Shown piece by piece: positions 1 to 3,148 of a DNA stretch of 64,000 bases (the stretch's first letter is position 1; each line of letters begins with the position of its first letter). The position numbers and the translations under genes are program-made. The notes below the pieces were generated by a model that ran no database searches, was not told the DNA's origin, and was given only the letters and a program-made list of their open reading frames with translations. Source of the DNA: Burkholderia sp. GAS332 (GTDB lineage Bacteria; Pseudomonadota; Gammaproteobacteria; Burkholderiales; Burkholderiaceae); assembly GCA_900142905.1 (NCBI GenBank), contig FSRV01000001.1:4216001-4280000 (forward strand), read 5' to 3'.

Positions 1-316
1 GCATAGGTTGGATCAGCACCGAAACAACCATGGCGACAAGCGCCCCAGCGATGACTGCTTTCGATATACGTACGAGGTCCGGCAAGCTCGCAAAGACCCA
101 CATGCCGCGGTATAGGCCGAAGATACGGAACATGACGCCGTAAGTCGGCAGGACCCAGAGGAGCGAATGCATCGCCCCGACCCTGAAGTCTTCAGGGACC
201 ACGCCATTGAAGCGGATGATGTAGGCGATCAGCCAAGCGGCGGCGACCGCGCACAAGTCGAAAAGGAAAGCGCTGAAAGACAGCCACGTGGCCTTGTTTC
301 TTAGCATCAGCGTCAT
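1..316 (-). CDS. WbpM/CapD-like nucleotide-sugar 4,6-dehydratase, N-terminal part (cut by window edge)
   Basis: Only the first 105 codons are inside the window; the frame is open to base 1. The start at 316 reads MTLMLRNKATWLSFSAFLFD, with hydrophobic helices following (residues about 10-35, 45-65 and 85-105). A short loop containing FGLYRGMWVFAS precedes the last helix. This membrane N-terminus is characteristic of WbpM/CapD/FlaA1-type membrane dehydratases, which convert UDP-GlcNAc to its 4-keto-6-deoxy form. The Rossmann and catalytic domain would lie outside the window, so activity cannot be checked. The gene starts 3 bp after the stop of the WbpL-like transferase and sits in a wbpV-wbpL-wbpM-like order, which supports the call. 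Confidence 0.75.
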   Translation of the reverse strand, partial: MTLMLRNKATWLSFSAFLFDLCAVAAAWLIAYIIRFNGVVPEDFRVGAMHSLLWVLPTYGVMFRIFGLYRGMWVFASLPDLVRISKAVIAGALVAMVVSVLIQPM

Positions 317-319
317 ACC

Positions 320-1342
320 TCAGTTATCGGACAGTGTTGATTGGAAACGACGCCAGCGCATATCAACTAAAGCGCCTGCTGCGCAGAGAACGACGATCCA
401 AACGGCGAGCACACACGATTGAAAAATCGCAGAGCGGCCAAGTGCACAAATAGCAAACATTATGCCAGCTACCATTAGTACGTACCACGTCAAAGCTGTC
501 CTGGCGTGCCCGATCCCGGAGCGCACCATACGTTGATAGTAGTGCTCGCGGTGCGCCTGCCAAAATTTTTCGCCACGAAGCAGTCGGCGTGCGAGCGTGA
601 TTGAGGCATCCGCGATGAACGGCGCGAACACGAGGATTGGGAACCAGACCGGCCACACACCGCCGCGCCAGCCCCAATAACCGAGTGCGCCAGCCAGGAA
701 GCCCAGTGAGATCGATCCAGCATCACCAAGAAAAATGCGTGCCGGGTGGAAATTAAACAACAGGAAGCCGAACGCTGCGCCTGAAATCGCCGCTGCAGAC
801 CACGCGAGTTCTGGCAAGGGGTGGTCGCTAAGCAGCGCCCCTGCCGCATAACCCGCGAAGCCAAACAGCGCCATGCCGCCCGCCAGACCGTCTGCGCCGT
901 CCATGAAATTGTAAAGATTAACCAGCCATATCATCAAAAAGGCAAGAATTACCAAAACCCACCAGGGAGCATCGGCGGGAAAGAGCACAACCAGCCCGAT
1001 CACGGCGACCAGATGCGCGGCGAACCTGACTCGTGCCGACAATCCGCGTCGGTCGTCGATTTGCGAAACCGCGGCCAGGAAAGCGGCACCAAGAGCAGCA
1101 CACCACAAGCTCGGCGCCAGTAGCAATGTCGCCGCGACTGCTACCGGCACGATGCCCCAACCGCCAACCCGCGGCGTAGGTCGCACGTGCAGAGAACGGT
1201 CGTTTGGAACGTCAGTGGCAAGCCGCCAGGCCAAGCCCGTTTTCAGTAATACGAATAGGATCGCGCCGCATAGACAGACGGCAGCCAACGCAACAACGGC
1301 GAGGACCGTCCATTGGGAAATCAACAAATCTTGCATCTGCAT
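320..1342 (-). CDS. WbpL/WecA-family polyprenyl-phosphate N-acetylhexosamine-1-phosphate transferase
   Basis: A 340-residue integral membrane enzyme of the MraY/WecA family. Family members transfer an N-acetylhexosamine-1-phosphate to undecaprenyl phosphate and so start O-antigen synthesis. The protein has about ten hydrophobic helices. It shows the family DD-type motif in VNLYNFMDGADGLAGG, the HPARIFLGDAGS loop, and the basic HREHYYQR cytoplasmic loop near the C-terminus. I chose ATG 1342 (MQMQDLL; 1336 is possible) because the upstream gene stops at 1351. The longer open frame upstream is just the other frame of that gene. Between a WbpV-like reductase and a WbpM-like dehydratase, the likely substrate is UDP-QuiNAc or UDP-FucNAc; this is inferred from gene order in Pseudomonas O-antigen loci. 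Confidence 0.85.
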   Translation of the reverse strand: MQMQDLLISQWTVLAVVALAAVCLCGAILFVLLKTGLAWRLATDVPNDRSLHVRPTPRVGGWGIVPVAVAATLLLAPSLWCAALGAAFLAAVSQIDDRRGLSARVRFAAHLVAVIGLVVLFPADAPWWVLVILAFLMIWLVNLYNFMDGADGLAGGMALFGFAGYAAGALLSDHPLPELAWSAAAISGAAFGFLLFNFHPARIFLGDAGSISLGFLAGALGYWGWRGGVWPVWFPILVFAPFIADASITLARRLLRGEKFWQAHREHYYQRMVRSGIGHARTALTWYVLMVAGIMFAICALGRSAIFQSCVLAVWIVVLCAAGALVDMRWRRFQSTLSDN

Positions 1343-1350
1343 CGGCGGGC

Positions 1351-2306
1351 TCAATGGGTCGAACGATACCAGTCTGCCGTCGCCGCCAGCCCATCGTCCA
1401 TAGAAAACGGCGGCTGCCAGCCAAGCACGTCGCGAATGTGCGCCGTTTCGACTCGCAAGCTGCCGATCAGCCGACTCACCTGCTCTGAGCGGCCAGTCAG
1501 ACGGCCCGCCGCTCCCAGCCAGCTCGCCGGCACCGGTAGCAGCCGTGAGGGCTTGCCTAGGTGGAGCGCAAGCGAACGCGCCAACTCCGCAACGGTTGGA
1601 GCATTGGCGTCGGCAACGTGAAAGCATCCGCGCGTTGCTTGTGGGTCGAATGCACAACGCACTAGTGCGTCTGCCAGATTGCCGACGTACAACAGACTGC
1701 GACGAGCCCCAATCGCGCCAATCGGTAGCGGTACGCCTTGCCAGACAGCGTCCATCAGGCGGAGGAAATTGGCGCGCACTTGCGGCCCATACACAAGCGG
1801 CGACCGTACAACGACCACGTCCAACCCCGTCGCATCGCCAAACCGAACGAGCGCATCCTCGGCCTCTCGCTTCGAACGGCCGTACGCATCCTCGGGAGAG
1901 GGTGCGTCGCTCTCGCACAGCGGCTTACCATTGTCCCGCTCCGCCACGGCCTTAATGCTGCTTAAGAACAGAAAACGTCGCGCGCCATGTTGCTGCGCGG
2001 CGGCCGAGAGGCGCAGCGTACCCTCAACATTCGTCGCTCGAAACGCGGCCTCCGGATCGGGAGCATTATCGTTCATTACATGCACGCGCGCCGCAAGATG
2101 AACCACACAATCGCACTTCAAACCAGTCGGCCACGACTGCGCGATCTCCCCGAAGTCCTCCCCTGCATAGACCCATTCCATCACGCCGTCCACCCCCCCC
2201 CTGGCCGACGCACGAGCCCCGTGACAGTGTGGCCGGCCTCGACAAGCACGCGGCACAGCGCCCGGCCGACGAACCCGTTCGCCCCGCTCACGACAACGTG
2301 ACTCAT
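1351..2306 (-). pseudogene. WbpV-like NAD-dependent epimerase/reductase, frameshifted at a G9 run
   Basis: A short-chain dehydrogenase of the extended NAD-dependent epimerase type. Homologues such as WbpV reduce UDP-4-keto-6-deoxy-GlcNAc to an N-acetyl-6-deoxyhexosamine. The start at 2306 is fixed by a 4-bp ATGA overlap with the upstream glycosyltransferase. It reads MSHVVVSGANGFVGRALCRV, a good Rossmann GxxGxxG start. After codon 37 the frame meets nine consecutive G and stops a few codons later (…PGGGWTA stop). All of the rest (VMEWVYAGEDF…, YGRSK active-site tetrad, through to WYRSTH) is intact in the next frame. One more G, or two fewer, would restore about 318 residues. So this is either a phase-variable gene in the OFF state, a simple mutation, or a sequencing error in the homopolymer. 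Confidence 0.8.
2193..2201. repeat. Nine-base C/G homopolymer at the frameshift site
   Basis: Nine C in a row on the given strand, nine G in the coding direction of the WbpV-like gene, 35-38 codons after its start. Reading through it in the start frame gives an early stop; the downstream frame needs 10 or 7 G. Homopolymers like this are classic slipped-strand sites, and they are also classic sites of base-calling error. Confidence 0.85.
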
Positions 2307-3148
2307 ACCCACTTCCACCCGAATCGATTGAAGAAGCGAAACGCCGATGCGATGAACATCCGGATATGCGCGGAACCTTTGCGTGCCGCCCCGCCACCGT
2401 GGTGAAGGACACGCACCGCCGGCATATAGGCGATGCGGGCAACCTCATGCGTGCGCAGGCTCAGATCGTAGTCTTCGAAATAGAGGAAGTACCTCGGATC
2501 GAAACCCGCGAGCGTCTTAAGCACCGAGGTGCGAAATAGCATGAAGCAGCCGCTGACAATCGGCGGATCCCAAACGATGTCAAGGTCGTTGATCAAATCC
2601 TGCATTTCATAGCGAGCCAGTCGCTCCTTGAAAAAACTGCGCGCGCGAGCGGGGAGGAAACCACGCACAAGCAGATCCAATAGCGTCGGAAAGCGGCGGC
2701 ACAAGTATTGGATGCGCCCCCCTTCGTCGCCGATGCGAGGAGTCAGAAGACCCACGTCCTGGTGCCATTCCAAAAATTCCAACGCGCACTTGAGCGCGTC
2801 GCGATCCAGATCGATATCTGGATTCAGCACCAGGTGATAAACGCTCGCCGAGCGCCCGATGGCCAGATTGTGCCCGCGGCCGTAGCCAACATTGCCCTGA
2901 CCGGCGATAACCGAGCACGTTGCGCCGCGGGAACGCAGCTTGTCGACTGCAGCCGTCATGTCCGGCAGGCCGCCATTGTCCACAAGACAGACGGATAGTC
3001 CAATGGATGGATACACCTCGGTCAACGCATCGAAAGCTAGGGCAAGACTTTGAAGTGTCTGCGCGAGTTGCTGTCTTTCAGGCCGATAGACTACGACGGA
3101 CACAGAGAGGCTGTTGATCTCGCTGCCTGACTCACTTTTGATATTCAT
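2303..3148 (-). CDS. GT2-family glycosyltransferase (rhamnosyltransferase-like)
   Basis: A 281-residue family 2 glycosyltransferase. The GT-A fold opening is SVSVVVYRPERQQL (residues about 15-28), followed by the nucleotide-binding LVDNGG, the acidic LNPDIDLD motif (DxD-like, about residue 112) and a C-terminal FDPRYFLYFEDYDLSLR segment that carries the ED acidic pair typical of WbbL/RfbF-like rhamnosyltransferases. It is a soluble cytoplasmic enzyme expected to add a sugar to the lipid-linked O-unit. It overlaps the start of the frameshifted WbpV-like gene by 4 bp (ATGA), so the two are translationally coupled. Donor and acceptor cannot be read from the sequence; dTDP-rhamnose is plausible because the rfb genes are nearby. 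Confidence 0.85.
   Translation of the reverse strand: MNIKSESGSEINSLSVSVVVYRPERQQLAQTLQSLALAFDALTEVYPSIGLSVCLVDNGGLPDMTAAVDKLRSRGATCSVIAGQGNVGYGRGHNLAIGRSASVYHLVLNPDIDLDRDALKCALEFLEWHQDVGLLTPRIGDEGGRIQYLCRRFPTLLDLLVRGFLPARARSFFKERLARYEMQDLINDLDIVWDPPIVSGCFMLFRTSVLKTLAGFDPRYFLYFEDYDLSLRTHEVARIAYMPAVRVLHHGGGAARKGSAHIRMFIASAFRFFNRFGWKWV

What the first reader, a model, noticed from the sequence alone, without database searches (positions are those of the whole stretch)
2193..2201. G9 tract switches off a WbpV-like gene: possible phase variation of the O-antigen start sugar
The start frame (fixed by an ATGA overlap with the upstream gene) ends shortly after nine G. The entire remaining protein, including YGRSK, is intact in the next frame. 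A tract of 10 or 7 G would restore it. The gene stands in a wbpV-wbpL-wbpM-like set, so switching would change or block the first sugar of the chain and hence the whole surface glycan.
Basis: partly seen in the sequence, partly recalled or inferred. Interest (0 to 1): 0.75.

Follow-up and report, generated by a model that had tools for sequence, protein, structure and literature searches.

The report
Broken O-antigen sugar gene (wbiG)
A run of nine identical bases breaks a gene that probably helps a Burkholderia-like bacterium start its surface sugar chain; such breaks can heal by themselves, but nothing here shows that the cell uses this one as a switch.

Summary
On the minus strand G9 (2193-2201) lies in nt 106-114 of an epimerase gene whose ATG (2306) overlaps the upstream stop. 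That frame ends after 41 codons; 278 further residues are open in the next frame. By order and domains it is a broken copy of wbiG in a wbiF-wbiG-wbiH-wbiI O-antigen operon, in a 10.4 Mb Paraburkholderia-type genome. In 60 of 60 distinct fetched relatives (55% identity or more) the frame crosses the site, with no G run above six. The two nearest proteins (97%, 95%) are full length with a cysteine inside the stretch. The tract is thus young, not a conserved switch. Decay is slight: one unusual residue in the PPLV motif, a motif whose change removes O antigen in B. multivorans (PMC5069766). A second gene (PAS-GGDEF-EAL) is split by a young G11 tract; four of four fetched relatives are open there. 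Most likely a real, potentially reversible slippage frameshift that blocks O-antigen initiation; a wrong tract length in the assembly cannot be excluded without reads; true phase variation is possible but unshown.

The parts
2193..2201 (-). G9 homopolymer (C9 on the + strand), nt 106-114 of the epimerase gene; site of the frame break
2181..2306 (-). 5' part of the broken wbiG-like gene: ATG (2306) to premature TGA (2183-2181), 41 residues with the NAD-binding GxxGxxG motif (GANGFVG)
   Evidence: start matches relatives
1351..2187 (-). 3' part of the broken wbiG-like gene in the other frame, 278 residues plus stop, Pfam Epimerase, YGRSK; residue 169 (numbering of P0003) is Ser where 116 of 120 homologues have Pro
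2179..2183 (-). TGATG: premature stop overlaps an ATG of the downstream frame; possible re-initiation of a 276-residue piece without the NAD motif
   Evidence: direct reading; function inferred
2303..3148 (-). wbiF-like glycosyltransferase family 2 gene, upstream, ATGA overlap
320..1342 (-). wbiH-like (WbpL/WecA-type) undecaprenyl-phosphate sugar-1-phosphate transferase, Pfam Glycos_transf_4
1..316 (-). 5' part of wbiI-like (WbpM-type) 4,6-dehydratase; continues outside the window to L179:8421 (631 residues in all; Polysacc_synt_2)

Best explanation
In the sequenced clone the wbiG gene of the O-antigen operon carries a real frameshift at a young G9 tract. Inference: a base change next to an older, shorter G run lengthened it, and replication slippage then left it out of frame. 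Without WbiG the cell should lack one nucleotide sugar that the WbiH transferase loads on undecaprenyl phosphate, so O antigen should be missing or altered. A G9 run in an otherwise intact gene is expected to revert more often than ordinary mutations, so the state is potentially reversible. Nothing indicates that it was selected as a switch. Shown: break in the assembly, intact remainder, operon, youth of the tract. Inferred: that the break is in the organism, loss of O antigen, reversibility, origin.
For: Frame and remainder. In 60 of 60 distinct fetched relatives at 55% identity or more the frame crosses the site, with longest G runs of 2-6 in the following 90 nt. Nearest copies P0002 (97%) and P0003 (95%) are full length with RRPGGCVDG at the site. 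No acceleration in the window copy: 4 private changes against 4 in P0002 and 10 in P0003. Operon order kept: GT2 upstream on the same strand in 18 of 20 loci, WecA-like and WbpM-like downstream in 19 of 20. No close paralogue in the genome: next match E 3e-9. Precedent: in B. multivorans a wbiG change in the PPLV motif removes O antigen and a wild-type wbiG restores it; a one-nucleotide wbiI deletion goes with the same loss and may have reverted in clade C4 (PMC5069766, passages). Few frame-breaking indels elsewhere: 1 indel not divisible by three in 36,301 coding bases aligned to the near relative G121.
Against: No reads or sibling strain were available; an error in tract length is hardest to exclude exactly at such a run. 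Of the four clear in-gene tracts of 9 or more, two are out of frame, which would also fit misjudged lengths. The Ser at 169 could mean the gene was already losing function. In B. cenocepacia IST439 variants, wbiI point changes could not be tied to O-antigen loss by complementation (PMC5462993, passages), so not every wbi change explains a rough phenotype.
Confidence: 0.45

Rival explanations
1. The tract length in the assembly is wrong; the gene is intact in the organism.
For: Long homopolymers are the weak point of many sequencing methods (recalled). Two of four clear in-gene tracts of 9 or more are out of frame, the second in a gene that is open across the site in four of four fetched relatives. 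The rest of the gene is clean.
Against: Few frame-breaking indels elsewhere (1 in 36.3 kb of coding alignment); completeness 100; a G10 tract inside a 698-residue frame (L169) and a G9 inside an 876-residue frame (L163) keep frame. The tract also differs from the inferred ancestral sequence by a substitution, which a pure length error does not explain.
Confidence: 0.28
2. True phase variation: an on/off switch of O-antigen initiation by slipped-strand mispairing, maintained by selection.
For: G tract early in a surface-glycan gene, remainder intact. A second gene split by a G tract (PAS-GGDEF-EAL, L175) in the same genome.
Against: Tract absent in all 60 fetched relatives and interrupted in the two nearest copies. 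Eight of the 13 runs of 9 or more lie between genes or before a gene start, and the flanks scanned are metabolic, transport and regulatory genes, one of them with a Fic domain. mutS and mutL frames are open. No length variation shown. By titles and shown abstract starts, the paper searches listed no homopolymer switch in wbiG.
Confidence: 0.15
3. Ordinary pseudogene: the gene was lost and will decay.
For: Out of frame; Ser at 169 where 116 of 120 homologues have Pro (3 Leu, 1 Met), next to a Pro found in 120 of 120; a change of the second Pro of PPLV abolished O antigen in B. multivorans.
Against: No other stop or indel in 278 codons; near-invariant columns kept as in the intact neighbours (2 of 85 deviate, the same two as in P0002 and P0003); neighbouring operon genes open.
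Confidence: 0.08
4. The protein is made despite the frame by ribosomal or RNA-polymerase slippage on the G run, or as two pieces by re-initiation at TGATG.
For: A run of G allows slippage in principle (recalled); TGATG overlaps the premature stop.
Against: No unusually stable structure in the 73 nt behind the tract: z = 0.06 against shuffles. All 60 fetched relatives use one frame; the ATG is not conserved (Met in 0 of 117 full-length homologues at that place); the second piece lacks the NAD motif.
Confidence: 0.04

Closest known systems
wbiG and wbiI mutations of Burkholderia multivorans in one chronically infected patient (PMC5069766, passages)
   Same: Same gene type and operon order by name; a change in it goes with loss of O antigen; a single-nucleotide wbiI frameshift may have reverted
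   Different: There a wbiG point mutation and a wbiI deletion selected in a patient; here a wbiG frameshift at a G9 tract in a Paraburkholderia-type genome with no phenotype data
WbpV-WbpL-WbpM of Pseudomonas aeruginosa O6 (UDP-QuiNAc synthesis and transfer; PMC3628348, passages)
   Same: Equivalent three enzyme types in a row: SDR reductase, WecA-type transferase, 4,6-dehydratase
   Different: Exact sugar of the window's enzymes not determined; WbpV itself was not aligned to the window gene here
Homopolymer phase-variable genes near 5' ends (swrA, flhA, inlA, flhB; PMC2831843, passages)
   Same: Single-base repeat early in a gene, frame decided by length
   Different: No length variation shown here; tract not conserved
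B. dolosa wbaD stop codon corrected in patients (PMC12096841, passages)
   Same: O-antigen production toggled by one mutation
   Different: Nonsense codon, not a repeat

Membership tests
WbiG/WbpV-type SDR nucleotide-sugar reductase or epimerase (claim made: a broken copy of such a gene, not a working member) | Epimerase (PF01370) domain with YxxxK | tested here: met
   E 5e-23; YGRSK
WbiG/WbpV-type SDR nucleotide-sugar reductase or epimerase | N-terminal GxxGxxG NAD motif in the same frame as the rest | tested here: not met
   Motif present but in another frame; in one frame in 60 of 60 fetched relatives
WbiG/WbpV-type SDR nucleotide-sugar reductase or epimerase | Place between a family 2 glycosyltransferase and a WecA-type transferase plus WbpM-type dehydratase | tested here: met
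WbiG/WbpV-type SDR nucleotide-sugar reductase or epimerase | Reduction or epimerisation of the UDP-4-keto-6-deoxy sugar | not testable with these tools
   Needs enzyme assay
Homopolymer phase-variable (contingency) gene | Repeat tract inside the gene near its 5' end, length decides frame | tested here: met
Homopolymer phase-variable (contingency) gene | Rest of the gene intact under constraint | tested here: met
   one unusual residue
Homopolymer phase-variable (contingency) gene | Tract length varies reversibly between cells or siblings | not testable with these tools
   No reads or sibling genomes; one genome per species held
Homopolymer phase-variable (contingency) gene | Repeat kept at the site in relatives (supporting, not strictly defining) | tested here: not met
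   Longest G run 2-6 in 60 of 60 fetched relatives; Cys in P0002 and P0003
Assembly artefact | Frame-breaking indels common in this assembly | tested here: inconclusive
   1 in 36,301 coding bases against G121, but 2 of 4 clear in-gene tracts of 9 or more are split and 6 unexplained frame switches in 498 kb were not followed up

The most novel reading that the evidence does not exclude
A Paraburkholderia-type bacterium has recently acquired poly-G switches in two unlinked genes, O-antigen initiation (wbiG) and a PAS-GGDEF-EAL c-di-GMP regulator on the 0.8 Mb contig, so that surface sugar and lifestyle signalling flip by slippage, in a group for which my searches listed no paper on homopolymer switching of these genes.
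Probability: 0.06. Interest if true: 0.55.

Novelty: new member of a known kind. Interest (0 to 1): 0.28.

Why it matters
If the break is real and reversible, a relative of Burkholderia can lose and regain its O antigen by one-base slips, much as B. multivorans lost it in a patient by a point mutation or a one-base deletion. This would bear on phage resistance, host recognition and biofilm. If it is only an assembly error, the lesson is to check long G runs in wbi genes before calling pseudogenes.

Tried and rejected
Programmed frameshifting: no unusual structure behind the tract, no conservation. Hypermutation: mutS and mutL frames are open. Unusual richness in G runs: the genome lies within the genus spread. 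General assembly indel load by a codon-usage model: a first run reported no frame switches because it ignored passages through the non-coding state; a corrected run detected 37 of 38 simulated single-base losses but also reports ordinary gene junctions; a filter against those found only 14 of 46 and left six unexplained sites in 498 kb that I did not follow up. I therefore quote no rate from the model and use the alignment to G121 (only 42.3 of 80 kb aligned, and 13 further indels not divisible by three fell in stretches called non-coding). The 20-kb DNA query against G121 returned nothing and was not interpreted. Organism identity by plasmid records: one short weak match only. In the table of tracts L164 is labelled coding although its tract lies before the first Met of a HiPIP gene, and L175 non-coding although the tract splits a gene; I corrected these two by hand. 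L170 (C9, 245-residue frame, no Pfam hit) is left out of the four clear in-gene cases; the flanks of L172 and of most G8 runs were not scanned. Three of the 120 listed homologues are shorter than 300 residues; one, P0017 (280 residues, contig of 2493 bases), begins exactly behind the site with V, not M, which suggests a gene cut by the contig end, but a break there is not excluded.

Full report
Observation. The window lies at C1:4216001-4280000 of a 10.4 Mb genome in 3 contigs. Its best named matches by this gene are mostly Paraburkholderia, and the nearest held genome by one conserved region is G121, 97% over 1.1 kb; the same gene in G121 is only 67% identical in DNA, so the O-antigen locus differs even there. 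The G9 tract, the ATGA start and the frame break are as described. The 278-residue remainder is a clean Epimerase-family protein.

What the gene is. Upstream is a family 2 glycosyltransferase; downstream are a WecA/WbpL-type transferase (PF00953) and a 631-residue WbpM-type protein (Polysacc_synt_2, E 5e-121 for the part in L179). In the 20 loci taken as Burkholderiales relatives (of 80 loci), the glycosyltransferase lies upstream on the same strand in 18, the transferase downstream in 19 and the dehydratase downstream in 19. This is the wbiF-wbiG-wbiH-wbiI order of Burkholderia O-antigen loci; the names and the proposed role in initiation are from PMC5462993 (passages) and PMC5069766 (passages), and the assignment is by order and domain type. 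The window also holds rml-type genes and an ABC-2 transporter. By analogy with P. aeruginosa O6, where WbpV makes UDP-QuiNAc and WbpL transfers it (PMC3628348, passages), the first sugar may be QuiNAc. This is inference.

The site in relatives. Loci gave 60 distinct gene copies at 55% identity or more. All 60 have the N-terminal motif in the frame of the rest, and the longest G run in the 90 nt after the motif is 2 in 6, 3 in 37, 4 in 15, 5 in 1 and 6 in 1. These are the fetched copies only: alone had matches in 127 of 144 genus genomes, of which 30 were given as loci. Of 7021 homologous proteins the best 120 were listed. The nearest two, P0002 (97%, metagenome) and P0003 (95%, named Paraburkholderia fungorum), are 318 residues long and read RRPGGCVDG; a cysteine codon begins with T, so a long G run cannot cross that place. 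Their DNA was not seen. Of 117 full-length homologues, residue 38 is Cys in 82 and Gly in 2. Three of the 120 are shorter; P0017 begins exactly behind the site and is unresolved. So the tract is new in this lineage: by inference the T of the cysteine codon has gone and the length has changed by a number not divisible by three. Intact copies exist.

Decay. Of 85 columns that are at least 97% uniform, the window copy deviates in two, the same two as P0002 and P0003. Private changes are 4 in the window copy, 4 in P0002 and 10 in P0003. One of the four is a Ser at residue 169, where 116 of 120 homologues have Pro, 3 Leu and 1 Met; the next residue is Pro in 120 of 120. In B. multivorans, PPLV to PLLV (called P169L) removed O antigen and wild-type wbiG restored it (PMC5069766, passages). 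The window's change is at the first Pro of the motif, the published one at the second, so it is a hint of weakened constraint and no proof.

Other G runs. The genome has 39 G/C runs of 8 or more, 13 of them 9 or more. By a codon-usage model the 38 runs outside the window fall as 23 non-coding and 15 coding, with the two corrections told under Tried and rejected. Four runs of 9 or more lie clearly inside genes: L163 (G9, 876-residue frame) and L169 (G10, 698-residue frame) keep frame; the window's and L175's (G11) do not. L175 has 588 residues with PAS domains in one frame and 596 with GGDEF and EAL-type matches in another. Four fetched relatives (97, 96, 88 and 71% DNA identity over the 1.5 kb queried; a fifth match was not fetched) have a stretch two bases shorter and no G run above six there, and all four are open across the site for 1132 to 1234 residues. 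Runs of 9 or more between genes lie beside genes such as ribulose-phosphate epimerase, aldehyde dehydrogenase, aldo/keto reductase, cation efflux, HiPIP, a LysR-type regulator, transporters and a Fic-domain protein. This does not look like a set of surface-gene switches.

Assembly quality. Against G121, 42.3 kb of 80 kb aligned, 36.3 kb of it called coding, with one indel not divisible by three there and 13 in stretches called non-coding. The assembly is thus good in general, but long runs are a special case and the question of tract length stays open.

Mechanism. Shown: out-of-frame G9 in the assembly, intact remainder, operon, no close paralogue (next match E 3e-9). Inferred: no WbiG, no first sugar or a wrong one, no normal O antigen; reversion by slippage. 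Published frequencies at an 8-9 A tract are about 1e-4 to 1e-5 in B. subtilis swrA (PMC2831843, passages); the rate for G9 here is unknown. In B. multivorans a wbiI frameshift may have reverted in one clade. Against a simple rule, wbiI point changes in B. cenocepacia variants could not be tied to O-antigen loss by complementation (PMC5462993, passages). A review notes O-antigen modulation in Burkholderia by mutation (PMC12096841, passages), and repeats in B. mallei and B. pseudomallei have been discussed as possible phase-variation sites (PMC1574311 and PMC3352902, passages).

Verdict. A likely real, lineage-specific and potentially reversible loss-of-function frameshift in wbiG (0.45), with assembly error (0.28) and true phase variation (0.15) as the main rivals. 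It is a new instance of a known kind. Reads would settle it.

Noticed in passing
L175:2001-2011 (G000:C3:521948-521958): G11 tract splits a PAS-GGDEF-EAL c-di-GMP gene into 588 and 596 residues in different frames; four of four fetched relatives are two bases shorter there, without a long G run, and open across the site.
   Followed up: partly
G000:C3 (0.80 Mb): Ten of the 39 G/C runs of 8 or more lie on this contig, which is about 8% of the genome.
   Followed up: no
L156:2001-2014 (G000:C2:822847-822860): G14 run, the longest in the genome, between a cation-efflux gene and an aldo/keto reductase gene.
   Followed up: partly
L005 against window 1-3148: In Paraburkholderia elongata the WbpM-like protein is 98% and the WecA-like 86% identical, but the epimerase and glycosyltransferase only about 73%: a possible recombination border inside the operon.
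   Followed up: no
L143:2001-2008: C8 run in a 772-residue frame where three relatives have interrupted runs of the same length; by my reading the changes are synonymous against two of the three.
   Followed up: partly
window:2179-2183: TGATG overlap of the premature stop and an ATG in the downstream frame; the Met is found in 0 of 117 full-length homologues.
   Followed up: partly
protein P0017 (metagenome contig of 2493 bases): A 73% homologue of 280 residues that begins exactly behind the tract site; contig end or a second broken copy, unresolved.
   Followed up: no
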